Notes under the pieces: model-generated
What the model was told of the DNA's origin: nothing
Databases searched by the model: none
Seen by the model: only the letters and a program-made list of their open reading frames with translations
Shown here: positions 8,901 through 62,600 of the stretch, piece after piece
Numbering within the stretch: position 1 is the stretch's first letter
How the letters are laid out: every line of letters begins with the position of its first letter
Made by a program: the position numbers and the translations under genes
NCBI GenBank assembly: GCA_030272155.1
Contig: CP126200.1
Coordinates: 2,480,001-2,544,000, forward strand
Direction: 5' to 3'
Source: Tetradesmus obliquus
Taxonomy: Eukaryota > Chlorophyta > Chlorophyceae > Sphaeropleales > Scenedesmaceae
DNA: 64,000 nucleotides

Positions 8901-11426
8901 ATGGGCTTGTCCTGGTGGCACCATCCCAAGCAGTGCAACCCCTGTGGCATGTCCATATGCACCTGAGCTTACCACTGCGGGCACAGGCTCCACCAGCCTC
9001 CTACAATGCGACAGTGAGTGCACCAGATGCGCCAGAGAAAAGCGTGCTGCATGTAATCACTGAAGCCAGCGGGGATGAGGCATAGCATGCAAGGCGTGGT
9101 GGAAAGGGTCCTGCTATGGCCCGTTTCCATATGTGGTGTTGTTTTGGTCTGCCTCCATCCAGTTCTGTCGCTGTGTCTTGCCGTCCAGATTTGCTAGTGT
9201 TGCTGCCATCTAAGATCGCCACTGCCTGTTATTTAGTTACATGACGTCTGTCCTTTGTTGTCTGCAGCCATCCAGGCAACGCGTTGCGCACCTGTGGGCT
9301 CGTCCGGGCCCATCGCCACAGCCATTGCATGTGTGTCTCCATCTGCACTCCACTGCCTGCTTACAATCCTTGCTGCCCTTGTCTGTTTCCATCTATTGCT
9401 GCGCCTGCCCACAGCCATACAGGCAGGGTACACACCTGTTGGATCGTCAGGGCCCATCCTGACAGCCATTCTGCCATCCGATGTTGGTGTTAACAATGTT
9501 GTTGCCATCTAAGAGTGTCCCTGCCTGTTGTCTCACAATGTGTTCAATATCTGCAGCCATCCAGGCAGGGTACACGCCTGTGGGCTCATCTGGGTCAATC
9601 CAGACAGCCATTGCATGTGTGTCAATATCTGCACTCCACTGTCTGCTTACAGACCTCACTGCCCTTGTCTATTTCCAACTGTTGCTGCGCCTGCCCACAG
9701 CCATACAGGCAGGATACACGCCTGTTGGCTCATCTGGGCCCATCCTGACAGCCATTGCCACTGTAGCAGGCATCACAGGGACTGCGGCGTGCCCACAGGA
9801 CTTCTACTGCCAGGTGCGTGGTGCATTGTGTTTGTTGTGCATATGCAGGGAATGCTGCGGGTTGTGTGTGCTGTGCCTGTACTACAGGCCTACAGTGTAG
9901 GCAACTGAGCGTCACAGAACATGTGCAGACGGAAGTAATGAGTGTTTGCAGCTGCCCCCAATGTTGCTGTGCTCAGCGTTGCACGATATAAGCCGGCCAG
10001 TCACGCCACACACATCAACTCTGGTCAACGTTAGGGCTCTAGGCATACTTCCTCCTTGCATGTCAGCCTGCAGCAAGAGCCTGTGGACGTGAGTCTGAAG
10101 CAAACCGCTCCTAACTTGTTGTATGCATCTGCCTGCCGGAACATCTTCTTTTGTTGCACAGGGTGGCGTGGTAACTGGCAGCGCTACTGCCGTCTAAGTT
10201 GATGTTTGTATGTGCCTGCCGCGGCGTGTTTGCTGCAGGGTGGCGTGGTGACTGGCAGCCCTACTGCTGGCCCTGGCATTCCAGTACTTTGCCCGGGTGG
10301 CACAGGCACTGCTGGAGCTTCTGCAGCAAACACCGCGGAAAACAACTGCCGTGAGTGTAGTTTTTGCAGATACCTGTACTGCTGTTGGACAAAATCAAGC
10401 TTAGGCAGTAGCCAAGAGGTGTGAATGCCTCCTGCTGGCTGTTAGTGTGGTGGTGCCCGCCTGCTGCTATGTGCAGCAGTGACTCCTTTGTGTTGATGTA
10501 TCTGCTGTTGAATACATCTTGTCTATGCAGAGGCGCCGCCAGGCTATGCCTATGTGCCAGGCTCGGCACCATCTGCTGCAGCCTTTTTTGCTGATTGTCT
10601 TGACAAATCCTTACTGATGTGGCTGCTGTGCGACACAATGGTATGATTGCAGAAAACACAGCCAGGCTATGTCTATGTGCCAGGCTCGCCACCATCAGCA
10701 GCAGCCTTTTTGTCAACTGTTTTGACAAATCCTTACTGATGTGGCTGCTGTGCGACACAAATGTATGATTGCAGAGACACCGCCAGGCTATGCCTATGCG
10801 CCAGGCTCACCACCATCAGCAGCATACCCTTTTGTCGGTTGCTTTGACACATCCTCATTGATGTGTCTTCTGTGCCACACATATGTATGACTGCAGAGGC
10901 ACCACCAGGCTATGCCTATGTGCCAGGCTCGCCACCATCTGCTGCAGCCTGCCCTCAAGGGCAGTACAAGGCCGGTTACAACAAGCTGATGTCATGTGAC
11001 ACGTGCTCAGCGGGCCTGACAACCAGCAGCACAGGGTCAACCAGGGCGGATGACTGCAAGAGTAAGCCCTAAGGGACGAACACACGAGTAGTGTACATGT
11101 GGAGTGTTGATGGGATTATGTAATTGCAGCAGCATGCATTGTGGTCACTGGCAGTGTGCTGCACAAAAGACATGGTGTGCAGCATATGAACCGGAGCTTT
11201 CTATAGCATTCAGGAGGGTGAAGCCTTGTCAAACTAGTCATAAACATGTACAGCAGCATGCTCCACAGCACAAGCAGCACCATGCAGCAGGCCTGCAAGC
11301 GTGCCGATGTCGATCGTCGGTTCCTTGCCTCACCTGCTGCCTCTGGTATCACCTGCTGCTACCGCGCCCAGTCATTGCTGCTGGCTTGGCGCCTGTTATT
11401 GCGAGTGTCATCCAGTCTTCCCCAGT

Positions 11427-11466
<40 letters not shown>

Positions 11467-14400
11467 TGCAGTCATCGCTGCTGGCTTGGCGCCTGCCATT
11501 GCAAGTGTCATCCAGTCCTTCCCAGTTGCTGATGCTGCTGCTGCTGCTGCTGCTGCCGCTGCTGCTGCCGCTGCTGCTGCCGCCGCCTGCAGTCATTGCT
11601 GCTGGCTTGGCGCCTGTCATTGCAAGTGTCATCCAGTCCTCCCCAGTTGCTGATGCTGCTGTGAGCACAGTGACAACCACTCAGTGCCCTGCTGGCAGCA
11701 TCTGCATTGGTGGAGACATCACTACAGCCGCCGGCATACCCGTTGCCTGCAGTAGCTTGGTGGTTGGCCTGACAAGTGCAGCAGGCAGCGACAGTGCTGA
11801 CGATTGCAATCGTGAGTGCATTCACCAGCAACGGTGATCTTCTGCCACACCTGCTATACACCACAGGGCACATATCTCAGTTTGTAGGGCGTGTAGTGAT
11901 GATCTGCATGTTGGACCTTACTAATATCAGGTCATCTTGTTGTCTAAAACGCCTGCAGTTCTTACTTCACACACCAAAGTTAAGAAACAAGAAGTTCAGG
12001 TTTAACAGCTACTGAGTCAGTAAGCCTTTGTGGTGTGAGAGGGCTCACGTGTTATTGTTTCATGTGTTGGTGTTTGCAGTTACGCAGCCTGGGTATGGCT
12101 ACAGTGCTGGTCCGCCCGTCACTGCCACCCTGTGTGCTGCTGGCACCTTCAATGCTGGCAGCAACCAGCTGGCCTGCCAGAGCTGCCCCACCGGCTTCAC
12201 CACCAGCGGCGCGGGTGCAACCAGCAGTGCAGACTGCACCCGTGAGTGACGTGGTACCGTGCCGGTGTGTCTTATGCACATACGTTTGAAACGTTTTTTC
12301 GATTGGTAAGCATTGCGGTTCTAGGCAAATGCACGCATTTGCCTTGCAATGTCATGAGCATCATTTGGAGGTGACAGCCGGTACTGGCACAGACAACGAG
12401 TTTTTAAGCTTTGACAAACAAGCTTTGCTGCTTGTGTGTCTGCAGTGGCTGCCCCTGGGTACGGGTATAGTGCTGGCCCGCCTATTACAACCACTCAGTG
12501 TGCTGCTGGCACCTTCAATGCTGGCAGCAACCAGCTGGCCTGCCAGGCCTGCCCAACCGGCTTCACCACCAGCGGCGCGGGAGCAACCAGCAGTGCAGAC
12601 TGCACCCGTGAGTAGCGCGCAGCCTGTGTCTTATGTGTCTGCTGTACTGGACTGTTTTCTGCATCTTGTACGAAGCGTATGTACTACATTGCGAGGCCGT
12701 TGTGCAGCATCTGCTTTGCCAGGTTGTGCACATCATTGCACATTATTGCACGGCCAAGGTTTGGGCATGGTTCGACCTCCCACGCTTGCTGCTTGTGTGT
12801 CTGCAGTTGCGGCCGCTGGTTATGGCTACAGTGCTGGTCCGCCAGTCACTGCCACCCAGTGCGCTGCTGGCACCTACAATGCTGGCAGCAACCAGCTGGC
12901 CTGCCAGGCCTGCCCAGCTGGCTTCACCACCAGCGGCGCGGGAGCAACCAGCAGTGCAGACTGCACCCGTGAGTAGCGCACAGCCTGTATCTTATGTGTC
13001 TGCTGTACTGGACTGTTTTCTGCATCTTGTCCGAAGCGTATGTACTACATTGCGAGGCCGTTGTGCAGCATCTGCTTTGCCAGGCCATGCCCATCGCCGC
13101 ACCTGATCGCACGCCCAAGGTTTGGGGATGGTTCGACCACCCATGCTTGCTGCTTGTGTGTCTGCAGTTGCCGCACCTGGGTATGGCTACAGTGCTGGTC
13201 CACCCGTCACTGCCACTCAGTGCGCTGCTGGCACCTACAATGCCGGCAGCAACCAGCTGGCCTGCCAGGCCTGCCCAGCTGGCTTCACCACCAGTGGCGC
13301 AGGAGCAACCAGCAGTGCAGACTGCACACGTGAGTAGCACACTATTGCGCCTTGTGTGCTGCTTTTTTACTTGTAGGCCTTCATTCAATGCAGCCGCATT
13401 ACGTTCCTAGGCAAATGCACGCATCTGCGCCTTGGTATCATGAACATCACCTCGTGGTGACATTCGGTGACACCAAATTCAAGGTTATCTTGTGCATCGA
13501 CAAACATGTTTTGCCGCCTATGTGTCTGCAGTGGCCGCACCTGGGTATGGCTACAGTGCTGGCCCGCCCGTCACTGCCACTCAGTGCGCTGCTGGCACCT
13601 ACAATGCTGGCAGCAACCAGCTGGCCTGCCAGGCCTGCCCAGCTGGCTTCACCACCAGCGGCGCGGGAGCAACCAGCAGTGCAGACTGCACACGTAAGTA
13701 GCACGCATCCCGCGCCTTGTGTGTCTGCTGCTTTTTCTTGTCGGGATTTTTCATTGGATGCATCAGCATTGCGTTTCTAGACGAATGCACGCATCTCTGC
13801 CTTAATATCATGAACATCACCCCGTGGTAACGGCCGGTGGCAACAAAAGCAAGGTTCTTTTGTGCCTTGAACAATCACGCTTTTCCTGTGTGTCTGCAGT
13901 CGCTGCCGCTGGCTATGGCTACAGTGCTGGCCCGCCTGTCACTGCCACTCAGTGCACTGCTGGCACCTACAATGCTGGCAGCAACCAGCTGGCCTGCCAG
14001 GCCTGCCCAGCTGGCTTCACCACCAGCGGCGCGGGAGCAACCAGCAGTGCAGACTGCACCCGTGAGTAACACGCAACCTGTGCGTTGTGTGTCTGATGTA
14101 GCAGCTTGTTTTGTGGATCGCGCACAATGCATATGCCTCAAATTACAAAGTGTGTGCAGCATCATGCTTTCCCAGGTCATGCACAACACACCACATGATT
14201 GCGCGTCCATGGATTCTGCGCTTTGAACAACATACTTGTTGCTGTTGTGTCTGCAGTCGCTGCCGCTGGCTATGGCTACAGTGCGGGTCCGCCTGTCACT
14301 GCCACCCTGTGCGCTGCTGGCACCTACAACGCTGGCAGCAACCAGCTGGCCTGCCAGGCCTGCAGCACAGGTTTGACAACAATAAGCGCTGGAGCAACAA

Positions 14401-16958: not shown

Positions 16959-17283
16959 GCGCACCTCAGCGCTGGCGGCACTCGCTGCAGCGTGTGGTGT
17001 GTGCTGTTTTGCTGCTTCCGCACATATTGACGTGTCTGTGTGTGCAGGGCAGAAGCTGCAAGGTTCCTGCAAGGTTCTGTGAGAGGCCCCAGAAGTGCCT
17101 GCAACTGGAGCGTGAAGTTCTGTTGCTGTAGGTTCTGCAATTGCATTTACAGGTGCAGACTCAACGAACCCAGTTCAGCGTTCACCAAATCCGCGTATGC
17201 TGCACTCAACATCCGCTGCATGATGCATGGCAGTCGAGTGTTTCATACATGCTGCACAGTGTGGTCGAAACGAAGTTGCTGTT

Positions 17284-19409: not shown

Positions 19410-19466
19410 CAGTTAAACGATCACCGAAACGGGCAGGTTGCAACCGTAAAAATCTACTCTGAAGCG

Positions 19467-20994: not shown

Positions 20995-21037
<43 letters not shown>

Positions 21038-24000
21038 TCGTAGCGCTGGACCCCCGCTATGCGTCGCGCAAGACGCACGAGTTTGTGACGGGCGATGTGC
21101 GCGGGCGGCTGAAGCTCAGCTCTCAAGTAGGTGTTGAAAGGCAGCACTTTCGGGCCTGCTTGCATGGCTGCATGCATGTGTGGAGCACCGGTGTGAGCTC
21201 GAGAGAGTGTCTTGTTGAGTTTGATCGTGTTGCTGGTGTGCGAAGCGACTGCTCGGGCATGCTGTGCGTGCTGGTTCATGGTCTGATCAGTGCGTCAAGC
21301 CAGCAGCAGCCAAGGCTTGCTTCAGCTCACATGCACATGCCAAGGGCACGCAGCTCCCAGGCCAGGGTGGATGGGTCTAGCTGCGTGTATGCTACGTATG
21401 CGAACGTGCTTCAAGCACGCAAGGATACATAGGCGCCCACAGTCCTACGCGCCAATGTCTTGTCCGTCCGTCACTTGAGTAAGACAGACATTACTACGCT
21501 GCTGCTGCTGCTGCTGCTGCATTAGGGCTGGCTGGGGCGCAATGACATGGTGCTGCACCAGGCCAGTCCTGCAGCACAATGCGTGACTCTCACTGCTGCT
21601 GCTGTGATGTTACTTCTGCAGGGCTGGCTGGGGCGCAATGACACGGTGCTGCACCAGGGCGAGGGGCCCATTCGTGCAGTGGCGTGGCATGGACCCATCC
21701 TGGTGTGGGCCAGCGACGTGGGTGTCAAGGTGCGGCGCAGTGTACGCAGCATGTGGTCGATTTACGGAGTTTCTGTATCTGTATGTGAACCGTCTGCTGT
21801 GAGCTGCGTTCAGTGCAGCAACCCACCATTGCATAGTGGTTTCGTCACATGGGCAGCATGGCAACTGTACCAGCACAGCCGCTGAAGGTTCCAAAGCCCC
21901 AGATTCCTCTCTGTCACCACCAGTATGTGTCCTCGCAGTTTCCACTCTCCACCCTGACCTTTAAACCATCCAACCATCTGAATCTGTTGTTTATCTCTGC
22001 TTAAACTTGCCTCAACAACCCTGTCCGGTGGTGTCTGCTTTCACTCGTTGTGCATTTCCTCCCTGCTTGTGCAGGTGTACGACACCAACCAGCACCAGAT
22101 GTTTGGCAGCATCCCGCGCCCGCGTGGCGGCCGCTTCCCTGAGTGCTGCGAGTGCCGGCTGTACCTGCACCAGGGCGAGGACCTCTTCGTGGCCTGGCCA
22201 GACTGCATCCAGGTGCGGTAAAAAATAAAATCACTACGTTTTGCTATGTTCAACAGTGTAACTTGTTCGTGGCCTGGCCAGACTGCATCCAGGTGTGGCC
22301 TTTTTTCATCACCAATACCTGCACTTTTGTGCTACTGGACAAGCACCTTGCACACCTGCACTAGGGCGAGGGCTTGTGCGTGGCCTGGCTAGACTGCATC
22401 CAGGTGCGGGGTGCGGCTAGCCAGTTGTACTGCCCTGATCTGTGTCACACAATCGGCATCAACCATCTCGCAAGACACCAACATGATGTGTGTTTTGAGG
22501 TGAGGTGGTGTGTGGAGTTACGCACGTCACACAACTCCCAGCACCCTTGGTGATGTATGTGCTGCTGTTGCTGTCAACGGGCAGCCTCACCTGCCTGTCC
22601 ATCTATGCCGTACTCGTCTGCTTGCTTGCTTGTGCGATTGCTGGCTGGCTTGCCAAGGTGCTGTAGGATTCATTGATATTTTGATTTATGATATTATGCT
22701 AAAATATAGAATTATAAATCTAAGAATGTGTTTAATGGCTTTTTGCGCGCCACCAGTGCTGCCGGCACCGACACGGTGTCTGCTGTAGTCTGGCCAGCTC
22801 AAGCTCAGCATGCCCTGTCTGTCACCTCTGCTTGCTGGCTGTTGCCGGCCAGGTGGCCAAGGTGCTGAGCGCCACCGACCCGGTGTCTGGTGCTACCTCG
22901 CCAGCTTGTGTTCTGCCTGCTCTGCCTGTCACCTCTGCTTCTCTGCTGTTGCCGGCCAGCACCTAACCTGCCTGCTGTGCCTGCTGTCTCTCCGTGCTGC
23001 TTGTCTTACATGCCGGCCAGGTGGCCAAGGTGCTGAGCGCCACCGACCCGGTGTCTGGCCAGCGCCAACATGCCTGCTTTTAAAACTCAGTTGCCTGCTG
23101 CCACTGCCTGCCTGCTTACTTGTTGCCGGTCAGGTGGCCAAGGTGCTGAGCGCCACTGACCCGGTGTCTGGTGCGATGCAGCGGCGGCTGAAGGTCACCA
23201 GCAGCATACCGGCAGACTTCTTCTGCCTGGTGAGGCGCGGCATGCAATGCGACACAGCAGTATAGTGCTGTGCAATGCGTGAATTGCAGTTTGGTATAGT
23301 TTACTGTCAAGACTGAACCTGGCCCCAGTCACTAGCACAGCTCGCCTGCCTGCTGACTTCTGCCTGGTGGGGCTATGGAGGCATGCAGCTCGCAAAGCAC
23401 AGCAGGCAGCACAGCGCACACGGCACAGCGCAGCACACACCGCGTAGCGCACATCTCGTAGCACGGCACACAGCACAACAGACTTTTTCTGCCTGGTGAG
23501 GCGCGGCATGCAGCACAGCAGTATAGTACATGGCATGCCCTGCATGTGCTGTGCGGTGTGCTGTGCGGTGTGCTACGTGATGTGCACTGTACAGTGCAAT
23601 AAGCAAGCAGCGCGCACAGCACAGCGCAACTCTCATCGCGTAGTGCACAACACGCAGCACAGTGCACAGCACACAACACAGCACATAAATTGGGGATGAC
23701 ATGTAGCAGCTGCACCCGCAGTGCATATGATACATCACGCAACACAACGCACATGGCTTGCGATGCCTACTTGATACACTGCATAACATGCAGCATGACT
23801 CAGCACAGCACACAACACGCCTACCGCATGACTCCGCACATCAAACAGCATGGCACACAGCATGACTTAGCGCCGCGCAAAACATGGCGCACAGCATGAC
23901 TCAGCACAGCGCGTAGCATTGCTCAGCACAGCACACAGCACGGCGCACAGCATGACTCAGCGCAGCGCACAGCATCACTCAGCACAGCGCACAGCACAGC

Positions 24001-25576: not shown

Positions 25577-28500
25577 AGCGGCAGTGCAGCAGCTGATGGC
25601 AGCGGTGAGGCAGCAGTAGCAGCAGGTGGTGCAGCAGCTGCTGATGAGAGCAGCAGCATTGTAGCACAAAAAGCTGATGCAGAAGCAGCAGCGACAGCAG
25701 GAGCAGCAGCGGATGCTGCGGCTGCTGGTGGCGGTGACGGTGACGGTGAACCTCTGGTTGAAGACTTTGGGGAGTTCATGTACTTCATAGTGTCACCCAA
25801 GGTGAGCTCCGCTGTGAATTTACTTCCTCACCCAGAGTTCACATCTCAACTTCTCCATTAGTCCCTCTGCTGCACACCAACATGGATGGGATTCCATGGT
25901 GGTGTGCCTCTTGCCCTATCAGCAGCAACTGCGCCACCTGCTGTCTGCTAGGAACAGGTTAGGCAAAGGTTCTCTCTGTTTCTTGTGTGCCTGTTCACTG
26001 CTGTTGTATCCGCGCATGGCATCCAGCAGACACACCATGTGTCACTGCACGCACACTCTGTCACTTCCCAGCCTGTCATTTGTTATTTATCGCAGGACAT
26101 CGTCATCGGCTGCCACCGTGACACCGAGGACCGCATCAGCTGGCTGCTGGGGGCGGGGCGCTTTGAGGCAGCGCTGGCTCTGGCAGAGGCAGACAGCAGC
26201 CTACCGCGCGCTGTGTTTGAAACCGTGGTGCAGGTGTGTGGTGCATCACGCAACTTGCATATGATTAGTGTGCCTACTACAGTAGCTGCTTTGTGATCAG
26301 CTGAACAGTGAACCTACACAAGACATCGCAGTGATGGCACTTATACAAGCGGCTCGGGAGGAAAAGTGTTCGGTCCACAGCATGCTACGCTGTACTGGGT
26401 TGCAGTGTGTGCATTGTCCGCAGGCAGGCTTTGGGCAGCGCTGGCTCTGGCACAGGCAGACAGCAGCCTGCATCGCGCTGTGTTTGATACCGTGGTGCAG
26501 GTGCGCTGTGTGTGCTGCATTCTTATGATCGCATCATCACACATAGCGTAGGGAGAAAGGCTTGGTGCGAAAGTCTGTTCTTGTGTAGGTGTGGCCGAGT
26601 GTTACTCAGAGTGTTACGGCTCGACACAGCATGTCGCGCTGCCGGCAGTTGAGCAAGATCATGCAGCCATTGGTGTTATGCATGTTGCTTGAGCTGTGCT
26701 GCTTCTGCTGGTGCCTGCCTTGCTTCCACCCTGCTGCTGACTCTCCTACTGTGACCACTGCTGCTGCTGCTGGTGGTGGTGGTGCTGGGGCCTGCAGGCA
26801 TACCTGGAGTACCTCACGGCTGCCGGCAAGTGGTCTGCTGCTGCTGACAGCCTGCCGCAGCTGCTGAAGGACCAGGGGGCCCTCTGGGAGCGCTGGCTCT
26901 ACGTGTTTGCTCAGGTGGAGCTTGCCTGTGCTCTGTGTTTTGTGTGTTGCTGCTGCTGAATGCTATGGTGTGCAACCCAGCTGACACATAGTTGACATGC
27001 TGTCTGTGGCACCAACCTACAAGCTGATCCATGTGGCTGTAATCTGTTATTCTTCTTCTCATGCCAGCATCAGCTTGTCAACTCCTGCTGCTCAGCTCCT
27101 ACTTCTTGTGCACTGATCAGGATATGTGTGCGTTGGTTGCTGCAATGCTCCTGCTGGTATCTGCAGGCGCGGCAGCTGCCGCTGCTTGCCCCGGTGCTAC
27201 CCACCAAGCGGCCCACGCTGCACAGCCACTGCTACGACCTGGTCCTGCAGGTAGGCGCAGGGCATGTAGCATGACAGTTTGCTTTGGTTTTGGCCTTGGA
27301 TTTGAACTATAGAATTTTGTTGCTGCCCACCAAGCGGCCCACGTCGCACAGCCACTGCTACGACCTGGTCCTGCAGGTAGGCGCAAGGCATGTGGTGTGA
27401 CATTTTGCGTTGGTTTGGCCCATAGAATTGGAGATATAGAATGTTGTTGCTGTCCACCACGCCGCTCACACTGCACAGCCACTGCTACAACTTGGTCCTG
27501 CAGGTAAGCTCAGGGCATCTAGCATGACAGGAAGCTTTGTTTTGGGCCTTAAAATGATTAATATAGAGTTTGGGATGCTGCCCACCAAGCGGCCCACGCT
27601 GCACAGCCACTGCTACGACCTGGTCCTGCAGGTAGGCCCACGGCATGTAGCATGACAGTTTGCTTTGGTTTTGGCCTTGGATTCGAGATACAAATATTGT
27701 TGCTGCCCACCACGCCGCTCACACTGCATAGCTTCTGCAGATCTGCTACGACTTGGTGTTGCAGGTGAGGGCGGCACACCACACGTTGCATGACGGGCGT
27801 AACACGGTTTGGCTCGTCACCATGCCTGTTGTCCAGCTGTGCAATGCCTGGTTTGGAAGTTGGTGATGTTGCTAAGGTGCTGCTGGTGGACCATTTGCAC
27901 CATGCCCTGCTGCTTCTTCCCCTCAGGATAACCCATCTTACAAAAGATGCTGCTGCTGCTGCTGTGCTGTTTGGCTGTTTGTACTGTATCCCGCAGGCGC
28001 TGCTGGTGGACCCTGCGCACCACGGGCTGCTGCTGAGCCTGGTCAGTGCCTGGCCGGCCAGCTGCTTCCACCCCACAGCTCTCATTGACGCCATCGCACA
28101 GCGCATGCAGAGGTGAGCGGCAGCTTGCTGCGCCTGGGCTTGTGTGCTGTGGTGGAAGCTGGGATAGCCAGCAGGGTTGATGCAGGTGCAGCGGTTGCTG
28201 CCGCCACTGTGCAGGGCACACAAAGGTTGAGGAGACAGACTCTGCTGTGTCTGCAAGTCAGTTCTGGATGGGGCAGGGCTCTGGCTTAAATTGCTGCAAC
28301 TGACGCATGCACAGTTGACTTTCCAAGCACGTGGTTGCTGCTTTTGTATGCGAATGGCGCAAATGAGTTCATGTGTCCTTCCAGTTGACTAGTTCTGCCT
28401 GTGTGTGCACACGTGCTGGGTGCAGGCCTGGAGGCGACAGCCGTGAGCTGTGGCAGGCGCTGGCTGTGCAAGGGCCAGGGTCGCAAAACGATGTATCATT

Positions 28501-45100: not shown

Positions 45101-48100
45101 AGGCTGGCCGTGACAACTGCTGCACGTGCTGACATGTACAACAACTGCCAGGCAGGCTTCGTACCTGGTACTGCTGCCCGATGGTCCACGGGATGAGGTC
45201 GCCCTGCGGCAGCTCTCCCCGTGCCAGGCTGCTGGCTGCGAGCTTGGCGTTGACAGCGCCCTCCAGCGCCACCTGGCGGCAACAACAGTTACAACAATGA
45301 AGTACACCCCACACGCCGCTGATGAATGTTTGGTGTGAATTGCCAGAGAGCCTGCAAAGCACCAGCTACGCCAACTATGTAGCTCTGCAATAATGTGTAA
45401 TTAGAGCCTGACAGCGACCCCTCGGTTCCAGCAAGGGCATACAGCATGACAACATCCCAAGAAGACAGCAAACCAAGCAGCAACAGCAGTAACAGCAGCC
45501 CACCTGCACCACTGCCAGCACGTCAGGCAGCGCGTTCTGCGTCTCATCCACAGGCCCCAGTAGCACGTACAGCTGGTGCGCGGGCGCGTCAGCCAGCAGC
45601 AGCAGGTCGTTGGGCGTGTTCTTGTAGTGGCTGGCCACCAGCAGCGCCTGCACCTGCAGGAGCCAAGCAAACATGACAAGAGCATATCAACCAGATTAGG
45701 TGTGAACCTGTGAGACACGTAACCAAGCGCGCAGAATATGCACGCAGTAATCGCACGCAAGCACCCAGACAAACAGCACATCAGCGGACAAGCATATGCT
45801 TGCAGGAAAGCACCAGGCTGGCCGTACCCGCTGCAGGAACGCCTCTGAGGCCTATTGGCAGCTGAAGAACGTGTCTAATACACCAAGAAGAGGTACACAA
45901 AATACGCATCAACACTCACCACACAACCCAACACAAGCATGCGCGCAGGTAAGCGCCTGGCAAACCTTACCCGTTGCATGAAGGTATCTGAGGCACTGTG
46001 GAATCTGAAGAACATGTCTCTCCACACAAAAAAGCGGCACAAACACACATCAACAAACTACACAACGACGCATAAGACTGCTTGCAGGAAATGCAAGCCG
46101 GCAAATCTTACCCGCTGCAGGAAGGCTTCTGAGGCCTTGTGGAAGCTGAACAGGGTGTCTCGCTCCACATAGAACAGCTCGCAGCTGCTGGGGTGCGGCA
46201 GCTTGGCTGGCGGGCGCGGCAGGTGGGTGGCTGCGTCCAGGCACAGCACGCTGTGCAGCCAGGACTCCACAGGGTCGCCTGGCGCGTACCTGTTGGAACA
46301 GGCGGGAAAACAGCAGCGAGCGTAAGCAGGCAACAGAAGTGTTGATGGTGGCAACAGCACGCTGTGCAGCCAGGCCTCCACAGGGCCCCCTGGCGCGTAC
46401 CTGTTTGGAAAATGGTGGGACAACAGCAAATGTAAGCAGGCAATAGAAGTGTTGATGGTGGCAGCAGCACGCTGTGCAGCTAGGACTCCACAGGGTCGCC
46501 TGGCGCGTGCCTATTTGGAAAAAGGGCGGGAAAACAGCCTCAGCAAGCATGTGTGACAGATGATGGCGATGACATCTGTCGGTGCCAGCTCTGCCAAGTG
46601 ATTCGAAGCAGTGCAAGTACGGTACACGAAGCCCAGCACAAGGCAGAGAGCCAGAGCAGAGTACGGTCAAGCTAACAGCAGCACATAGCATACGACAAGT
46701 GCTGCGGGCACGGTCAAACACAGTCAAGCCTCACCTGATGGGCTCCTCCAGGGTGACCTCCCTGAAGGTCCGGCCCCCAGCAGCACCTCCCCCACCACCA
46801 GCAGCAGCAGCAGCACCTCCAGCAGCACCGGGCTTGCTGCCTTTGCTGCCACCTGCTGCCTGCTCCCGCAGCTGCTGTATGAGCTTGAGCGACAGGCTGC
46901 GGCCGGTGCCCTCATAGCCGTTGACTGTGGAGCACAGGAACACCAGGTAGGGGCCCAGCATTGCCTGCAGGAAAAGTCAACCATGGACATAACATAGATG
47001 TAACACGTCACATGACATGTATTGTGGACTGTAAGTTGAGGTTGCTTACCGCAGACAACACGAGGGCCAGCAGGACGCTTAGCACGAAATCCGGTAGTAA
47101 ACACAAGATGCTGCCACAGTCACAGCTACTTGCTGTGGCTTGAATGGTGACATGATGATGAGTCACAGCTACTGTCATGTGCTGCCACTTGCACCGTTTG
47201 AATGTTGTTACTAACGCACCTTGACCAGCGGCAGCGGGATGGCAGCAGCCTCGTCAATCACCAGCAGCTCTGCCTGCGTCAGGCGGTTGGCGTGCTGCGG
47301 TTGGATGTACTGCACCGTCTGCAGACAAATAGAAGCATTGCAGCCGAGACAGGCAGCAGCAGTACAGGTGTATAGGTGTGGCAGTCAAAAGCAGCAGAGC
47401 ACAGGGTGAAGAGCGCGCAGCCGCAGTTTGCAAACAGAAACAGAGGCCAGAGAGTCCTATGGCGGGCAGGTTCATGTATTGCATTGAAAACAAATTGGTT
47501 TTGACCTTGATTTGACCGCCACCCACCTGGTGGTGTGCCCCGAACACATTGACACGCACCACTGCGCGGCCCAGTCCGGATTGGTGCTCCCCACCATGTG
47601 ATAATCTTTGTTTTTGAAACATGCAAAAAGGTTTGGCGTTGACCTATTGATCACCACCCACCTGACGGTGTGCCCTGAACACGTTGACGCCCACCACAGC
47701 GCGGCCCCACTCAGGGTTGGTGCTCTCCACAGGTCATCATCTCTACTCACAAATGACCAAGCAATGTTTAACCACTACCCACCTGGCGGTGTGCTCTGAA
47801 CACGTTGACGCGCACCACTGCGCGGCCCCAGTCGGGGTTGGTGCTCTCCACCAGGTCATAGTCGATGTGCTCCTGGTAGCCGCACGCGTCCAGGCCCTTG
47901 AACACAAACTCAAACAGCGTGCGCAGGTTCTCCGGAGACGGCGCGGTCACAAAGATGTTGGCGTAGCCCAGCGCGATGGCACCTGCAGGGGAGAGGGAAA
48001 CAGCAGCAAAGCAGGCCCTTGCATGCAAACTTGAACAGCGTGCACAGGTTCTCGGGGGACGGGGCGGTCACGAAGATATTGGCGTAGCCCAGCGCGATGG

Positions 48101-50500
48101 CACCTGGGGGGTGAAGGGAAGACATCAACAAATATATTATTGTCAGCTAGCAGACGGGGTAAGAGTGCAATGAGATGCTTCAACAGGCTGATGGTGTACG
48201 TGCTACAGGCCAGCATTGCGTTTAGCCATGATCAGCTGCTTCAACGTTAGCTGCATGTGCTTCCAATGTATCATAAACAGCGCCAACATGCAACTGCAGA
48301 AGTCCTGCCTGCAGCACGCTGCTGTTGCTGTAGTCGTATGCTGCTCTGCAAACAATCGACCCCTATCACTGCAGTCAAACCGCCAGTCAAACCCACCAGC
48401 CAAAACCCACAGTCACCAACTCTGCTTATCTGCAATGGCCAGCCCCAGCGCTGCAGACTTGCCCTGGCCTCTGCTGGCTGTGAGCGCCCTCCATTGCTGC
48501 TGTACTCATAAGCTGCTCAGCAACCAAGTCCACCCGGTCTATGTAGTCAAACTGCCGGTCAAACCACCAGTCAAAATCACTCTGCTCACCTGCAATGGCC
48601 AGCCCCAGCGCTGCAGACTTGCCGCGTCCTCTGCTGGCGGTGAGCGCCAGCGTGCTGCGCAGCGTCTTCTCACTGGCAGCGTCCAGGAAGGTGACCAGCG
48701 CATGCGCTTGGTCCAGCGTACGGCAGCGCGACACCTGCGCATGTGCGATTTGGCCATGAATGTTGTCAGGCAGCAGCAGGAGGCAGGAGGTGCATGGCAC
48801 GGCACCGTCCTGTTCGTTGTGTTTTGGCAGTTGCACCAGCAAAAGGCCTCAATTCAAAAGGCGTGCTGTACAGATCAGCTACAGAGACCACACAATCAGG
48901 AGCAACCCACCGGCAGCAGCAACAGCTGGGCAAGACATGATGCAACCACACAGCATGCACCCACCAGCGCCCCCGCCGGCTGCGTGTCTGTGAGGCTGTC
49001 CTTCAGGTCAGACAGCTCCGCCTGCCCTGCTGCCGAAGGATCATTAAGCAGCTTGCCATCAGGCCCCGTTGGCAGCGGCGCGATGTGCCGAATGAGGCTG
49101 CTGGTGGGCAGCACATTGAGCTCGTCGTCCATGATGAGGCAGTGAGGGTTGCTGGCAAGCGACAGCACCAGCCGCTCGTTGAAGCGGCCTGCGGCATCAG
49201 AGCGAGCCAGGCAGTGTGTGCAGATGCGTGCGTGTGCAGATTGGGTTCAGCAGATGGCCGCAGAGAGCAGGTGGCTGTTTGATGCCAATAAGGATACGCC
49301 ATTGAGAGTTGCTTGTATGCCGGGTGAGGCTGCTGCCTGTTCCTGCTGCTGCTGCTGCTGCTGCTCCCTGCTGTGACATAATCCATCCCGTGCGCACCTG
49401 TGACTGTCTGGTGTGCGTCGGTGCGCAGCCGCGCGTGCACGTCCATGGTCAGCGTGTACAGCTGCGTGAGGCTCTTCAGGTTGCTCAGCAGCATGATGAC
49501 GATGCCGCCGCCCTCCACAGTCTCCACGGTGCGCGCCAGCAGGTTGGGCGTCAGCGCCTCAAAGTCCTGCAAAGAGTTCCAAGGCTTTGATGTGAGGGTT
49601 CAAGAAACAGGGTTTGCAAGGTTTGAAGAGGACAGCAGCTGGCGAGACTTTTGGGGGGAGGGCGAGAGAGGATCCAGGCGGCTGCAAGCAGGCCCATATG
49701 TCATGCAGCTGCCCCCGCAGCATCCTGGTTCGAAGTGTATGTGACATCGCATCTGGTAGCCAACCAATACCTGACCAGCTATTGCTTCCAACAAACAACG
49801 CGCACCTGCAGCACTGCCATGCCATATGTGTTACCCAGAATGTTCTGCGTCTCATTGTAGTAGCAGTAGCGAATGCTGGTGCTGGCCACAAACAGCGCAA
49901 AGGGGTCCTCCTGCTCAGGGTCAAGCAGCCCACGCTGAGACATCTTCTTCAGCTGCTTCATGCGCTTCTTCTTGTGGCTGCAGGACGCAGTGCAGTCAAC
50001 GGCAGGGGTGTGTTATTTTGACCAAAGTTCGACTGGTGCTGGCCACAAACAGCGCAAAGGGGTCCTCCTGCTCAGGGTTAAACAGGCCCCGCTGAGACAT
50101 CTTCTTGAGGTGCTTGATGCGCTTCTTCTTGTGGCTGCAGGAAGCAGTAGCAGTGCAGTCAACGGCAGGGGTGTGTTAGTTTGACCACAGTGTGACTGGT
50201 GCTGGCCACATACAGCGCAAAGGGCTTCTTCTTGTGGCTGCACAAAGCAGCGCGGTCAATGGCAGCGGAGTGTTGTGTTGATTTGACCGGAGTTTGACTG
50301 GTGTTGGAGTGGCCTGATCGTTGAATTAAATGATGCGAGATGTTGGTGTTCACTTGCTACGAGTGTTCAGTTTGATGTATTGGGCGAAGATGCAGCAGTC
50401 CATAGGGCAGCTGCTCGTGTCCGTGACAGTGTGCTACATTGTTGACAGAGCTGATTGCCTCGACAACTCCTGCTGTTGGCGCCGTTCGTGCCATATTATA

Positions 50501-50541
<41 letters not shown>

Positions 50542-51528: not shown

Positions 51529-54380
51529 ATGCGTTTGACTGCTTCGCTGCAAAGAGGAGGCCAGACTCCTTTCCAGGCTTCTCAGACACCTCCACTGAGG
51601 CCACGTCGTTGCTCTGTGGTGACACATACGGGCAGGCGTGATACATTGCTGGCTGGACTGGTAGCAACTGGCAGCTTGCTGCTGCCTCTACACGATGCAA
51701 GCGCAGCTGCTGCCGCACCTGCAGCGCGCAAGCCCTTCTGTGCTGTTGTAGATCAAGTGGTGCGTGCGTGTGCAGTGTTGCTGCAGTGCAGCAAATGTGA
51801 TGCCCTTTCAGGGCACATGCAACATAATGCCCAGTGCAGTCAGCTCCCGAGCATATCCTGTTATGGTATACAAGCAGCGCACCATCCAGTCCTGCATGTG
51901 GCGTTGCAGCAAGCACTCTGGAGGTGACGCTCCCGCGCATGCACCTGAGCAGGCGCAGCAGCACACGTCACTTGCCTTGTGTTGTTCACATGCCTCACTG
52001 TTCAACCTGCGACCTGTTGGGCTTGTGCTGTGCAGCCAGCTTGGGCCTACAACACGCCATGGCGGGTGAGGCAGCCAGACGCTGCAGCTGATGCAGAGTG
52101 CAGCATTGCCGCTGGGAGCGCAGATGCTGCAGACGTAGTAGGCGCTGCTTGCTGCGTAATGCTTGATGCGTATTGCTGTTTAAAAGCACAATGTTCTTTA
52201 TGTGTTGGGGAATTTCAAAGCCGCAAGTGAGGCATGCAGCAGCTGCCCTTGTACGACAACTGTGCAAGCCACCAAACCTGCCAGTCAAGTGCACACCAGG
52301 CTACCACGCGCTGCAAGACAGCAGTTTCCTGCACTTTCTGGCTTTGTGCTTTGCAGGAGAACCTTGTCAGATATGCAAACCATTGACATGCCAAGTAACC
52401 TGTCCACCGCTGCAATGCTGTCTCCCGCACTTTCTTGCTGTGTGCTTTGCAGGAAGACCTTGTTAGCTATGCTGGGGGCAAGACGTGGTACCGCTTTGTC
52501 AACTACCTGCCGCCTCCCAGCGGATTTATCAACAAGCTGACTCGCAACCTGGCCAGCAACATCGCACAGGTGTGCAGCGCTGGCTTGCTTGTCACACGGC
52601 AGCTTTCATTGATGATGCACTGCAAGGGGTAGAACATAGACAGCGGTGCATGGTGGCTCCAGCAGCAGATGCGACACCAAGGTTGGCTGCAGCTCTTTGG
52701 GGCGCGACAGTCAGCACGTGGCAGACATTACAGCTGATGTTCTTTGTGTGCCTGCTGTGCGCCCATGCACTACCGGCAGCTGGTACGTGTCAGTAGCTAG
52801 TGAGCATGCTAGAGCCTGCAGCGCACCTGCTCAGCACCTGCATGGCTCCTGCCTGCCTCACCCTGCTGCTGCTTCTGAAATTGCAGGACAAGGCGCCGCT
52901 GCTGGTGCTGGCAGGTGGCTGTGGGCTGCCTGTCTCGTGCTGTGTGGCGTCAGCTCAGTGCCTGAGGTGTGCTGTGCTGTGCTGCCTGCTGCTTCTATTT
53001 GATTGGTTTGCAGGACAAGGCACCGCTGCTGGTGCTGGCAGGGGGCCCCGGGCTGCCTGTGTCATATTTGGAGCCGCTGGAGCTGATGGCTGGGGTGGGG
53101 CGCCAGGTCATCTTTTATGACCAGGTGGGTTGTAGGGTTCTGTTATAGGCGTTTTCGTTGGTTTTGCATGTATTGTTACAGTGCAGTCTAGTTTTGTTGT
53201 GCCTAAAGCAGCTGGAGGTGATGGCTGGGGTGGGGCGCCAGGTCATCTTCTACGACCAGGTGGGTCTAAGGTCTCTGTTACATCTGTGATATTGCTTCTC
53301 TGAGTGTTAGTTTTTTGTGATCTGTTTGTGTTGTACCTGGAGCTGCTGGAGGTGATGGCTGGGGTGGGGCGCCAGGTCATTTTCATGACCAGGTGGGGTA
53401 TGTTATTTCAATTTTGCGGTGTCATATTGCTGGATCTGTTGTTATTGTAGTTGGAGCCGCTGAAGCTGACGGCTGGAGCGGGGCGCCAGGTCATCTTGCA
53501 CAAGTGGGGACAGGCACTATGACATGGTACCCTGCCTTGCACTGATCGCCACGTTTTCAACTTTCCTGGTGACAGGTAGACAGCTCACTCGCATGGATAT
53601 GTGATGGGTGTCTGCTTGCAGGTCGGCTGCGGCAACACATTCCTTGCCAGCAACAGCACATGCCCGCCTGCAGACCAGCTAACCCTGGACCTCTACCTGC
53701 GTCAGATAGATGCTCTGCGCGAGGCGCTTGGACTCGAGAAGGTGCACCTGTACGGCCAAGGTATTGGCGGTATGCTGGCACTATCATATGCTGCCTCCAA
53801 GCAAGGCGCAGCAGGCGGCGTGCTTAGTGTAACAGCAGCATCCACAGCTAGCAGCTACAGCCAGTTAGTAACAGATCGGCGAGCAGCACTGAAGGGTCTA
53901 GGTGAAGCAGCTGAAGCAGCTTTACTAGCAGCAGATGACGCTGGCAGCAGCAGCAGCAAAGAGGCAGCAGGTGCGCTGCAGCAGTACACACAGCAGTATG
54001 TATGCCGCTCCCCGGCAGCAACAGCAGCATCACCAGCCGGCTGCGCCCGCTTGGCAGCGCAGCAGCGCAGCAGGCCGGTGTTTGATGCGCTAGCTGGCTG
54101 CCGTTACTTCTCTCCTGCAGGAGTTTTAGCAGGCTGGGATGCTCAGGGCTTAGGGCTTAGCAGCTTGCAGGAAACGCCTGTTCTTGTTACACGGGGCGAG
54201 TTTGACGAGGTGTCAAACGCTTCAGCGCAGCAGCTGGCAGGGCTGCTGCCAAATTGCCAGATGGCTGAGTTTGCTGGTGCTGGCAGCTACCAGCACATCG
54301 ATGCTTGGGAGCCGCACCTGACGCGTATTGAGCTGCACTTGTGCGCTGCTGAGGGCTCGCCTATCCCCAAGACAGCGTGA
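51529..54380 (+). CDS. Proline-iminopeptidase-like alpha/beta hydrolase, probable lumenal pseudoenzyme
   Basis: Exons: 51529-51759, possibly 52036-52065, 52453-52569, 53014-53124 and 53622-54380, all joined in phase 0. The N-terminus is Arg/Ser/Thr-rich, then RRDTLLAGLVATGSLLLPL and DASA. That pattern is a chloroplast transit peptide followed by a twin-arginine thylakoid-lumen signal with an AxA-type cleavage site. The fold matches the proline iminopeptidase family: VSYAGGKTWYRFV, LVLAGGPGLPVSYLEPLEL, GRQVIFYDQVGCGNT, LGLEKVHLYGQGIGGMLALS, PVLVTRGEFDEVS, GSYQHIDAWEPHL. Family members have HGGPG and GQSWGG; here these are AGGPG and GQGIGG, so the nucleophile Ser is Gly (codon 53760-53762, GGT). 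The Asp and His positions remain. Either a non-peptidase partner protein or an inactivated copy. The second exon is weakly supported. Confidence 0.8.
52340..52475 (+). repeat. Head copy upstream of hydrolase exon 52453
   Basis: ctttgtgctttgcaggagaaccttgtcagatatgc at about 52343-52377 matches the true acceptor and exon head at 52439-52473 (period 96 bp). The copy carries its own CAG acceptor but diverges after about 25 bp of exon sequence. Confidence 0.75.
52880..53505 (+). repeat. Hydrolase exon 53014-53124 with one head copy and three tail copies
   Basis: A head copy (DKAPLLVLAGGCGLPVSC) lies upstream at about 52887-52940. Three tail copies (LEVMAGVGRQVIFYDQ type, each followed by GTGGG or decayed) lie downstream at about 53208-53264, 53340-53395 and 53452-53510. 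The intact exon keeps GGPG, while the head copy reads GGCG. Confidence 0.9.
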
Positions 54381-54688
54381 TGGCATTGCTGGCAACATGT
54401 TTAGGCTAGGGAAGTGTGTGGTCGCTTTGACTGGAACACATTGGGGAGACTCTGGCCCCTCTGCCGGCATGGTGTGCATGGTGACGTTTATTTGATACCA
54501 GTGTTGTTTGGACAATTGGATGGTGGTACACACAGTCATCTGGGTTGTTGGTGCTGGCAGCTACCAGCACATTGATGCTTCGGAGCCGCACCTGACGAGT
54601 ATTGAGGTGCACTTGTGTGCTGCTGAGGGCTCGCCTATCCCCAAGACAGCGTAATAGCATTGCTGGTAGCATGTTGAGGCTTGGGGAG
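54275..54688 (+). repeat. Duplicated hydrolase 3' end beyond the stop
   Basis: 54275-54413, covering the catalytic-His segment GAGSYQHIDAWEPHLTRIEL, the stop codon and early 3' UTR, is repeated at 54550-54688, an offset of 275 bp. The second copy is about 90% identical by eye, keeps a stop in the same place (TAA instead of TGA) and is outside the coding frame. It therefore lies in the 3' UTR or beyond. Confidence 0.9.
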
Positions 54689-59551: not shown

Positions 59552-59628
59552 TCAGAACGCCCAGCGCAGCTGCGTTGTGCAAATGTCAGCTGCTGCAAGT
59601 GCTGCTGCTTCTGCCAGGACCTTCCCAA

Positions 59629-59659
<31 letters not shown>

Positions 59660-62600
59660 AGCCTGCTCAGCCTTGTCACTGCAGGCTGCAGCAGCCACCA
59701 GCTCGCTAGCAGCAGCTGCTGCAACTGCTGTGGGCGATGCCAGCTCCGCTTGCTTGGCGACATCAGTACTTGCAGCAACAGCAGCACTTGCAGCAACGTC
59801 AGGTACTGACACAACATCAGCACCAGTCACAGGCTCTGGTGTGCTGCTGTTGCTGCTGCTTCTGACCCACCGCCGCCGCAGCGACTGCTGCTGCTGCTGT
59901 TGTTGCTGCTGCTTACGGCTTGTGGGCTTGGCTTCACCAAACCACAGCTGCTCCATAGTATCAAGCGCAGGCACAGCTTGCCTGCTGCTTGAAACTGCAT
60001 CAATCTCAGCCTCGCTGCAGCTGCTGCTGCTGCTGATAGAAGAGCTTGCCGTGTAGACTGCCGTGCTGCTGCTGGCTGCTGCTGCTGCAGTGCTGCTGCT
60101 GCTGCTGCTGGTGGCAGTAACCGTCACAGCGAACCGCTGCCCACTTGCCGCCTGCTTTGTACTGCCTGCTGCTGCAACCTCCTGCTGCTCCTGCACACTG
60201 TTGCTGCTGCTGCTGCTGCCCTGCTGCTTCTGCTTCATTAGCTCGATGTGCACTGAGCTGAGCCACTCCATGACAGCAGCATCTGACCAGGGCTGCTGGA
60301 AGGGCGCCCCAGGGCCTGAAGCCCAGCCCAGGTGGCCTCCGCAAGGCGTCACTGCGACAGGAAAGCACAGGAAAGGGGCGTCAGCCACAGCAGAAGACAC
60401 AGCACCATGACGATGGTGTTGTGGCTGTGGCTGTGCTGCACATACTCAGACCTTTATATAAGTAAAGACGAGCCCCTTGCAACCATAGCATCCGGTCGAA
60501 GTTAACCCCTGCTCAAAAGCAGCTGTTGACTTCATCACGCGCGCCAGCGCGGTGGTGGCCTCAATGCCCTGCCAGCGTGCAGCGCAAGTGGGTTGGCCTG
60601 GTAGCCAACATGGCTTTACTAGGTGCATCACCCCTTCCACCAGCCTGAGCACGGTGCCCTCACCTGCCAGCATGCAGTAAGGGTTGTCCTGGATAGCATC
60701 GCAAGGAATGGCCTCTGCAGGTGCAATGGGGTCATCCAGCGCCTGGATGCAAAGCAACGGCAGCCGCACCGCAGGTATGCGCTTGGCGCTGCTGCTGCCC
60801 GCATAGTAGGCATCAACGTCCTCCCAGTCTGCGCAGAAAAGAGAAAGCAGGAGCAGGATAACGGCCGCATTTAGGTCAATCACCAGGCAATTTGACTGTA
60901 TCTGCTGCAAATGTTGGGTGCTCACTCTCCACAAAAAAACAGCCCCAGTGGCAGGGGCGCGGGTGCTGGAGCATTGTGAATTGAGTTGAACAACTAGCGT
61001 GGTTGTGAGCGATCACACCACCACGCAAAGCCCGCCCATGGGCTGGCCAGCCCACCATCAAGCCTTGCACCATCACTCCAAGCGCTACAGCTCACTGTGG
61101 GCACTGTGGGCACTACATGCGGCTGCACAAGCCCTTTCAAAACTAGGATAGCAAGTTCAACCACATCAAAGTTCATGTTAAGGTCACTCACTGAAGCTGT
61201 GCACAGTGATGGCTTCATCAAACTCGCGGATGGTGGTGCAGGTGGGCACCAGCTGCGGCTGCGCTGGCCCCGAGTGCCCCCGCCACACCAGGTGGTGCTT
61301 AGCAAAGATGCGCTTCAGGCCGGCTGCCAGGTTCCAATTGTAGATCTTGTTGAAACCCTGCGGCAACAACAGAAAGTAGTGTTGGTTTTGTAGAAGGAAC
61401 AATGAAGGTGCTTGGCAAAGATGCCCTTCAGGCCGGCTGCCAGGTTCCAGTTGTAGATCTTGCTGAAGCCCTGCGCCAGTATACAAATGATTTGATCAAT
61501 GTGTCACTAACATGTAGGAAGATTGTTGGAGCAATGACAGTAGGGACAGACTGCCGTGCAAGGGCAGGCGCACGTTGGTATGCTGCTGCAGCCCCCGTGT
61601 TACCACACCAGCATACTGCTGACAGGCCACCGCGCCCGGCGTTCAGCATAACTACAGGCAGCGAGATGTAAGCAAGACGACCAGGCATACACAGATCGCC
61701 CTGGCCAGCACGCACTGCACACCTCGTTGATCTGCTTGTTGCTGATGGTGAGGTCAAAGGGGTTGCACATGCTCACTGCCGCCTCGATGGGCGTGTCTTC
61801 CCCCTGTGAGCAGCAGCAGAACGCACAGGCGCGACAGGTCAGCGCACACACACTTCAGGCCTTGAACTTTAACAGCCCAACGCAGTAGCTGTTCTGCAGC
61901 TGAGGCAGCCATGCACCTGCTGTGCCTGTTGTGTACAGCGTCAACCAGCGCATGCCCACTCTGCCAGGGTGAGGTTGCCATGGTAGCACTGCTGCAACTG
62001 CTGCGAGTAAGCCCTAGCACTGCTGCAACTGCTGCGAGTGAGCCCTGAACTGAATAAAGGTCTTGATATTCAATGATCGTGTGCAAGGCGCACCTGCTCC
62101 CCCAGGTAGTTGACCAGGATGTTTGCGCCCAGCGACCAGCCAGCAGCAAACAGCGTGGAGTTGGGGAAGCGCTTGTGCACGTGGTCCACCACCTGAGCGG
62201 CAGCAGCACAGCACGCCACGATGCAGCACATTGAGAAGCCAATTCACATTAACCGACACCAGCAGCATGACAGCATCTGCAAAACGGCCCTGCAGGTGCA
62301 TCGCACAGGATGCCTGCGCGCTGCTTGCAAACTGGCTGTTGAGTGACGCAACTGTGTGCAGACAACTGCAGCTGGCACTACTTCAGCACCTTGCCAAACC
62401 AAATCAGTGCAAGCATCACACTGTCTAGCTTGCGCCTGCAGCATAAGGCACTGCTATCAAGCTGTTGATTGATCTTGCGCTTCCTGGCAGGCAACAGGCA
62501 GCTTGCATCTGCTGCATGCTGCCCACCTCTCGCGTGTCGCCAGTGAACGAGGCCGAGTAGAACTGCGGGGTCAGCACTGGGCTGTCTGCAGTGCCGCGGC

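What the first reader, a model, noticed from the sequence alone, without database searches (positions are those of the whole stretch)
9268..61475. Genome-style 'stutter' of splice junctions with strict polarity
In every confident multi-exon gene, segments of about 50-170 bp spanning an intron/exon junction are tandemly copied. Extra copies of acceptor plus exon head always lie upstream of the intact exon (VPS41 exons 7, 14, 18; NAT10 exons 2, 6, 9, 15; EMB8 exon 5; Cys-rich exons at 9701, 10897, 11593). Extra copies of exon tail plus donor always lie downstream (VPS41 exons 6, 10, 12, 17; NAT10 exons 5, 6, 9, 15; hydrolase exon 53014). The polarity follows from simple tandem duplication across the junction. 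The enrichment at junctions does not: it needs a mechanism or strong selection that tolerates copies only where splicing can discard them. The result is a reservoir of decoy splice sites and proto-exons.
Basis: seen in the sequence. Interest (0 to 1): 0.88.

Follow-up and report, generated by a model that had tools for sequence, protein, structure and literature searches.

The report
Stuttered exon ends in algal introns
In this green-alga genome many introns hold partial, apparently non-functional copies of the neighbouring exon end with its splice site, more often than chance placement explains, and they offer a natural test of how cells choose between real and decoy splice sites.

Summary
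In 344 kb from ten contigs, 65 repeat arrays span a junction, 12 are noncoding and 11 involve weak exons. "Every multi-exon gene" is too strong: at least 19 of 49 gene runs. Per available position junction arrays are 4.4 to 8.5 times as frequent as noncoding ones, and about 2.5 times among the least diverged (17 against 14, p 0.01). The excess is thus partly present at birth and partly longer survival. Copies are direct (215 pairs against 2 inverted), drift without coding constraint and mostly keep GT or AG (72 of 86). Simple tandem duplication does not cover everything: 20 of 26 two-copy events have a spacer of 31-200 nt, mostly without homology, and 15 have at most 15 intronic columns; simulated simple duplication gives 1-36% and 5-17%. 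Best reading: exon-biased short-range duplication, filtered by selection, leaving neutral decoys.

The parts
49876..50307 (-). NAT10 exon 2 (49806-49977): two extra copies of acceptor plus exon head (about 50051-50134 and 50214-50237)
48323..48648 (-). NAT10 exon 5 (48590-48734): one extra copy of exon tail plus donor; decoy donor reads ATAAGC instead of GTGAGC
47482..48132 (-). NAT10 exon 6 (47783-47982): acceptor/head copy upstream and tail/donor copies downstream
45761..46549 (-). NAT10 exon 9 (46112-46289): head copies upstream, tail copies downstream
43091..43613 (-). NAT10 exon 15 (43284-43472): head copy upstream, tail copy downstream
21498..21658 (+). VPS41 exon 5 (21622-21729): head copy upstream (CTG-rich, weak)
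22163..22409 (+). VPS41 exon 6 (22075-22212): tail plus donor, three copies, by eye with unrelated intronic sequence after each
22756..23174 (+). VPS41 exon 7 (23134-23229): acceptor/head copies upstream
23213..23557 (+). VPS41 exon 7: short tail copy downstream (17 exonic columns)
26160..26510 (+). VPS41 exon 10 (26096-26233): tail plus donor copy 268 nt downstream; the 184-nt spacer has no other match in the genome
27195..27794 (+). VPS41 exon 12 (27167-27250): tail plus donor, five copies, period about 126 (labelled e10 by mistake)
28421..28718 (+). VPS41 exon 14 (28656-28782): acceptor plus head, three copies, period about 112
29917..30284 (+). VPS41 exon 17 (29846-30004): tail copies downstream
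30367..31228 (+). VPS41 exon 18 (31175-31337): acceptor plus head, seven copies found by a pattern containing CCTGCAG; flanks of at least two types in mosaic order by eye
52862..53497 (+). Hydrolase exon 53014-53124: tail plus donor copies downstream
54271..54688 (+). Same gene, exon 54028-54340: tail plus donor copy about 274 nt downstream
61294..61478 (-). EMB8-like exon 61192-61357: acceptor plus head copy upstream in the gene, 41-nt spacer without homology
9198..9758 (+).
10493..10950 (+).
11326..11661 (+).

Best explanation
The copies are fossils of short-range direct duplications (spacing mostly about 80-300 bp). Such duplications arise somewhat more often with a breakpoint in or just beside a coding exon, plausibly by repair of breaks with long single-strand overhangs, sometimes with filler between the copies; some sites then expand into arrays. 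Selection removes those that lengthen the coding sequence. Those that cross a splice junction leave one complete exon edge and splice site, so the mRNA can stay unchanged and the extra half-exon sits inside the intron. That half-exon then evolves neutrally while its source exon stays frozen, which keeps the pair recognisable for longer than an intron-only duplication. SHOWN: presence, polarity, direct orientation, junction excess, decay without coding constraint, spacers. INFERRED: break repair, exon bias as the source of the birth excess, that splicing ignores the decoys.
For: Direct orientation: 215 direct against 2 inverted filtered pairs. Exon-only arrays rare: 3 of 54 in gene domains against 19.9 expected; their units are 126, 235 and 299, so only one is a multiple of three, and the one of 235 joins two predicted exons. 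In gene domains no array was classed as an exon-interior copy lying in an intron; outside them one array (C1:35732) pairs an exon stretch with sequence past the predicted gene end. All 17 exon ends in NAT10/VPS41 include the exon edge. Decay without coding constraint: mismatches at codon positions 1, 2, 3 are 388/2574, 372/2601, 558/2585; 22 of 126 gaps are multiples of three (pooled over overlapping pairs). Rebuilt NAT10 without decoys aligns over residues 2-1062 of 1082 with a solved RNA cytidine acetyltransferase (7mq8, human by recall; printed alignment cut near the end). Junction excess 4.4-8.5-fold overall, 2.5-fold at noncoding identity 0.80 or more. Repair of breaks with protruding ends makes tandem duplications, occasionally with inserts (PMC5730883, passages).
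Against: The 2.5-fold birth excess rests on 17 against 14 arrays (5 against 4, p 0.14, at identity 0.90 or more), with exons from my own gene finder, unchecked by RNA. It does not by itself explain why 15 of 26 two-copy homologies have at most 15 intronic columns. The exon-to-intron divergence ratio is not the neutral one: true-decoy pairs, expected 2, give 1.50; decoy-decoy pairs, expected 1, give 1.57 (only pairs where both parts are still alike: 54 of 177 and 47 of 135). The exon-interior ends show no clear motif and, by eye, no obvious microhomology. In 41 of 86 nearest decoys the alignment runs more than 60 nt past the junction, so one mechanism may not cover both classes.
Confidence: 0.55

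Rival explanations
1. Plain head-to-tail tandem duplication at uniform rate; the junction pattern is geometry plus survivorship only.
For: Units (78-299 in gene domains) are of the order of exon and intron lengths, so random placement already gives 60% junction among junction plus intron-only; among gene-domain arrays with intronic identity at or above 0.80 the split is 8 to 3 against 0.50 expected, p 0.12; multi-copy arrays such as VPS41 exon 12 look exactly like this.
Against: Observed 47 to 4; rate ratio to noncoding DNA 4.4-8.5, and 2.5 (p 0.01) at identity 0.80 or more; simulated detectability of junction and intron-only duplications is nearly equal up to t 0.14; 20 of 26 two-copy events spaced and 15 of 26 with at most 15 intronic columns, against 1-36% and 5-17% simulated.
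Confidence: 0.2
2. A splice-site-aware process makes the copies: segments bounded by the splice-site core (for example templated by RNA or limited by splicing-associated breaks) are duplicated into the adjacent intron.
For: Homology ends on the splice-site side far more often than uniform (KS p 3.8e-5 for 26 events, 7.7e-7 for the spaced ones); beyond that end there is no residual similarity as a group (combined z -0.13 over 20 events); spacers show no dispersed family apart from simple repeat (20 spacers in the sample; one of them in the whole genome).
Against: Direct orientation only; 41 of 86 nearest decoys align more than 60 nt into the intron; three of 20 spacers contain a further copy, so some spaced events are decayed arrays; single spacers do show similarity (C5:11729 z 3.8; C5:24553 z 7.3 and C1:14514 z 2.9 to the other flank); no RNA intermediate shown.
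Confidence: 0.13
3. Old tandem duplications whose exonic part is kept similar by recurrent gene conversion from the exon while introns diverge.
For: Of 80 true-decoy pairs with exon-part identity 0.9 or more, 30 have intron parts below 0.55 (background 0.48); of 51 such decoy-decoy pairs, 15. Mosaic flanks in the VPS41 exon 18 array.
Against: In 34 decoy donors without intron homology and with GT kept, +3 and +5 agree in 0.91 but +4 and +6 in only 0.65 and 0.68; conversion should reset all of them together, though constraint on the true donor afterwards would restore part of the difference. Tracts are mostly 40-120 nt.
Confidence: 0.07
4. Decoys are kept because they work: alternative or recursive splicing, or control of intron retention.
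For: 72 of 86 nearest decoys keep GT or AG; the seven VPS41 exon 18 copies all carry CCTGCAG, but the pattern that found them required it.
Against: 0.84 is close to the 0.78-0.79 at which other exon dinucleotides are kept (a smaller set); in-frame open use is possible for 7 of 86; no codon or frame constraint; some decoys carry stops or broken sites.
Confidence: 0.03
5. Assembly artefact.
For: No raw reads could be examined.
Against: Two-copy alignments are 63-96% identical; 17-contig assembly; local direct repeats in all ten contigs sampled and junction arrays in the gene domains of seven of them.
Confidence: 0.02

Closest known systems
[quoted passage not shown] abstract and Results section read)
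   Same: Tandem duplication of 3' intron end plus 5' exon head; the paper also mentions an 83-bp duplication inside the first intron.
   Different: Single case, verified by reads; the duplication made a new intron plus inserted exonic sequence. Here many sites, and the extra copies appear to stay inside the existing intron.
Rogers-type tandem duplication of an AGGT exonic segment and internal gene duplication (Gao and Lynch 2009; Hellsten 2011; seen only as cited in passages of PMC3443670 and in PMC4974935)
   Same: Intragenic direct duplication meets the splicing machinery.
   Different: Those duplicate exon interior and create an intron; here the exon edge is duplicated and, in NAT10, exon number need not change.
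Short tandem repeats enriched near intron-exon junctions in Chlamydomonas and Volvox (PMC3887541; passages and methods section read)
   Same: Tandem repeats in green-algal introns concentrate towards intron ends.
   Different: Units of 1-50 bp; here units of about 80-300 bp that include exon sequence and the splice site.
Tandem duplications from repair of breaks with protruding ends (PMC5730883; passages read)
   Same: Direct duplication of the overhang segment, occasionally with inserts.
   Different: Induced breaks in mouse cells; no link to exon ends.
Introner elements (PMC9860276; search listing only)
   Same: Genome-wide intron-shaping process in diverse eukaryotes.
   Different: Dispersed mobile families; here the two segments looked up genome-wide have only local matches and the spacers are not a family.

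Membership tests
Tandem genomic duplication (direct, adjacent copies) | Direct orientation, local | tested here: met
   215 direct against 2 inverted local pairs; the VPS41 exon 10 segment has only its local copy in 104.7 Mb
Tandem genomic duplication (direct, adjacent copies) | Copies adjacent, homology as long as spacing | tested here: inconclusive
   6 of 26 two-copy events adjacent, 20 spaced, with no spacer similarity as a group; arrays such as VPS41 exon 12 are adjacent
Intron gain by tandem duplication | Duplication creates a new spliced intron | not testable with these tools
   No RNA. NAT10 without decoys aligns over residues 2-1062 with a solved NAT10, so no new exon is required there
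Tandem exon duplication (mutually exclusive exons) | Whole exon with both splice sites duplicated and frame kept | tested here: not met
   All 17 NAT10/VPS41 cases are partial copies of one exon end; frameshifting gaps and little codon pattern overall. Possible exceptions: C5:24913 and C12:10568, where both copies are predicted exons
Introner element | Dispersed similar copies in many introns | tested here: not met
   Of 20 spacers 5 have other hits in the sample: three a further local copy, one simple CTG repeat, one a single weak hit; the one spacer looked up genome-wide has no other match
Short tandem repeat enrichment at intron ends (green algae) | Unit 1-50 bp | tested here: not met
   Units 78-299 bp in the 54 gene-domain arrays; my event search left out spacing under 60, so shorter units were not asked about

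The most novel reading that the evidence does not exclude
A duplication process that recognises, directly or through splicing intermediates, the exon edge: it copies exon ends up to just past the splice-site core and places them in the adjacent intron, making decoy splice sites in up to about one in four introns and lengthening introns genome-wide.
Probability: 0.15. Interest if true: 0.88.

Novelty: new variant of a known kind. Interest (0 to 1): 0.6.

Why it matters
Here 61 of 242 gaps between strong exons contain a junction or intron-only array, and these are longer (median 399 against 248 nt; gaps may hide weak exons, and longer introns have more room), so the process appears to build intron length. 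PMC5966456 (passages) gives Tetradesmus obliquus a mean intron of 462 nt against 230-302 in three other Sphaeropleales; if this genome is that species, which is my inference from size and GC, stutter may be one reason. Each array is a natural competition assay: near-identical exon ends, several near-identical splice sites, one correct choice. With RNA reads, splice-site choice between true copies and decoys becomes directly testable at many loci in one genome, and the decoys are raw material for new introns as in the potato case.

Tried and rejected
Rejected: introner or transposon origin; templated insertion in either orientation; a nicking motif at the exon-interior end (TGCAG 0.08 against 0.16 at random exon positions; CAGGT 0.12 against 0.07; GGTG 0.38 against 0.21; n = 26, the last not pursued). 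The first event classification (39-40 junction, 12 intron-only) was replaced because it looked only at the first unit and called several junction arrays intron-only. An apparent loss of the decoy donor G (0.79 at +1) was dropped because that call left out decoys that my gene finder had called junctions; an apparent strong conservation of decoy consensus was dropped because its filter required at least 4 intronic columns; one search repeats it without that filter and keeps the +4/+6 dip. Searches used identity measures with a high background and are not relied on; (196 junctions with copies) gave the first sign that intronic homology often ends early. For a time I held that geometry and survivorship explained everything; the comparison with noncoding DNA changed that. 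One search's extreme p-values are not used: 31 of its 40 outside arrays involve strong or weak exons that fell outside the gene domains; one search is the corrected comparison. With no complexity filter and DUST off, exon-only arrays rise from 2 to 25, which I take for simple repeats.

Searches: in nine paper searches the 10-25 results listed by each showed no title or abstract start about 80-300-bp duplications at exon ends in an algal genome; one search returned no paper. Most hits were not listed and only open-licence papers are held, so this is no proof of absence.

Not possible: protein homologue search, relatives of this genome (none held), RNA, raw reads.
Full report
SETTING. The window is G000:C10:2480001-2544000 of a 104.66-Mb, 17-contig genome. 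Light-harvesting, ClpP and P450-like translations in other contigs (names recalled) and GC of 0.51-0.60 across the window fit a green alga, possibly Tetradesmus; the species is my inference.

METHOD. No annotation exists here, so I wrote a self-trained hidden-Markov gene finder and ran it on the window plus 280 kb from nine other contigs. It over-predicts: of 705 exons only 337 pass a coding-score and length filter ('strong'), and the counts use those. NAT10 and VPS41 were curated by hand. NAT10 exons 2-17 without decoys read as one open frame, and with exon 1 align over residues 2-1062 of 1082 with a solved RNA cytidine acetyltransferase. VPS41 exons 2-19 likewise read as one open frame, but my exon 1 does not join them in frame, so that end of the model is incomplete; residues 578-764 of a 773-residue query match a solved Vps41 at E 1e-20. 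Local repeats were found by self-BLAST.

OBSERVATION. Before complexity filtering there are 325 direct and 13 inverted local pairs within 1.5 kb; after it, at spacing 60-600, 215 and 2. Of the sample's 26 two-copy junction events 24 have that polarity and 2 include both exon ends. At least 19 of 49 gene runs carry a junction array.

IS IT MORE THAN CHANCE PLACEMENT? In gene domains 54 arrays (40 more lay outside and were set aside) split into 47 junction, 4 intron-only, 3 exon-only; random placement of units as long as the spacing, on structures with the duplications collapsed, gives 20.5, 13.6 and 19.9. In the two curated genes there are 13 junction arrays and 1 intron-only (a CAC-rich minisatellite), expected junction share 0.59, p 0.007. 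Against all noncoding DNA of the sample: 65 junction, 12 noncoding, 11 weak-exon arrays; per kb of possible start positions 0.77 against 0.091, or 0.175 if weak-exon arrays count as noncoding, so a ratio of 8.5 or 4.4. Changing the complexity filter or switching DUST off leaves noncoding arrays at 10-12 and junction arrays at 66-89. Exonic halves decay more slowly, so I also asked for at least 40 noncoding columns and compared by their identity: the ratio is 3.9 at 0.65 or more (37 against 19), 2.5 at 0.80 (17 against 14, p 0.01) and 2.5 at 0.90 (5 against 4, p 0.14). The narrower gene-domain test at 0.80 is not significant (8 against 3, p 0.12). In simulation both kinds are almost equally detectable up to t 0.14, and junction copies gain after that. 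So there is a modest excess at birth and a larger one by survival.

WHAT THE COPIES ARE. Mismatches between exon and decoy are 15.1, 14.3 and 21.6% at codon positions 1-3, and 22 of 126 gaps are multiples of three: the decoy drifts without coding constraint, and the extra third-position differences fit synonymous change in the exon. If used, 60 of 86 nearest decoys would shift the frame, 19 would be in frame with a stop, 7 in frame and open. GT or AG is intact in 72 of 86, not far from the 0.78-0.79 of other exon dinucleotides.

WHAT SIMPLE TANDEM DUPLICATION DOES NOT EXPLAIN. In 20 of 26 two-copy events the copies are 31-200 nt apart, and beyond the end of homology there is no residual similarity as a group (combined z -0.13), although exonic identity is 0.92 or more in 11 of the 20. 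Single exceptions: C5:11729 (z 3.8) and, against the other flank, C5:24553 (z 7.3) and C1:14514 (z 2.9). In 15 of 26 the homology has at most 15 intronic columns; against a uniform position of the junction in the repeat KS p is 3.8e-5. Head-to-tail duplication followed by neutral decay gave 1-36% spaced and 5-17% with at most 15 intronic columns (donor junctions only, gap rate taken from aligned pairs, which misses large indels). Three of the 20 spacers contain a further copy, so some spaced events are decayed arrays. The rest may be duplications with filler, as break repair can give, with the intron-side breakpoint just outside the exon. A splice-site-aware process is not excluded. Counting the nearest decoy of each of 86 junctions, 41 alignments run more than 60 nt into the intron and 27 end within 15 nt of the junction or just short of it, so two classes seem to coexist. 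The divergence ratio of intron to exon part, 1.50 for true-decoy and 1.57 for decoy-decoy pairs where neutrality predicts 2 and 1, is unexplained.

COMPARISON. The nearest published event that I found is a potato gene in which a duplication across an intron-exon boundary made a new intron (PMC4974935). Enrichment of 1-50-bp repeats near intron ends is reported for two green algae (PMC3887541). The present case differs in unit size, in including the exon edge and in number.

VERDICT. A real and common feature of this genome, unlikely to be an artefact. Polarity follows from any duplication that leaves the exon intact; enrichment is real but smaller at birth than it looks; the copies are best read as neutral leftovers of exon-biased short-range duplication. 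The spaced class that ends at the splice site is the part worth a specialist's time.

Noticed in passing
window 12070-14755: About six tandem 361-366-bp repeats in or beside the Cys-rich gene (TNFR-like by eye), about 70-77% alike.
   Followed up: no
window 56231-56548: 31-bp minisatellite, about ten copies, 89% alike.
   Followed up: no
window 23614-24233: CAC/CAG-rich minisatellite in a VPS41 intron; the only intron-only array in the two curated genes.
   Followed up: partly
window 30367-31228: The seven VPS41 exon 18 copies have at least two kinds of intronic flank in mosaic order, as if the array had been reshuffled; in six of seven the AG is followed by GT, the form of a recursive splice site.
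   Followed up: partly
blocks C5:24913-25289 (in L020) and C12:10568-10774 (in L027), positions counted from the start of each joined block: Both copies are predicted exons with intact splice sites; in the first all 8 mismatches fall on third codon positions, so it may be a functional duplicated exon.
   Followed up: no
block C9:15325-15563 (in L025): A purely intronic array, period 78, 97% alike: a rare, little diverged intron-only case.
   Followed up: no
sample-wide: Predicted donors are mostly CAG|GTG with G common at +5 (G at +3 in 0.82-0.83), not GTAAGT; acceptors CTGCAG|. The tables come from my own gene finder.
   Followed up: no
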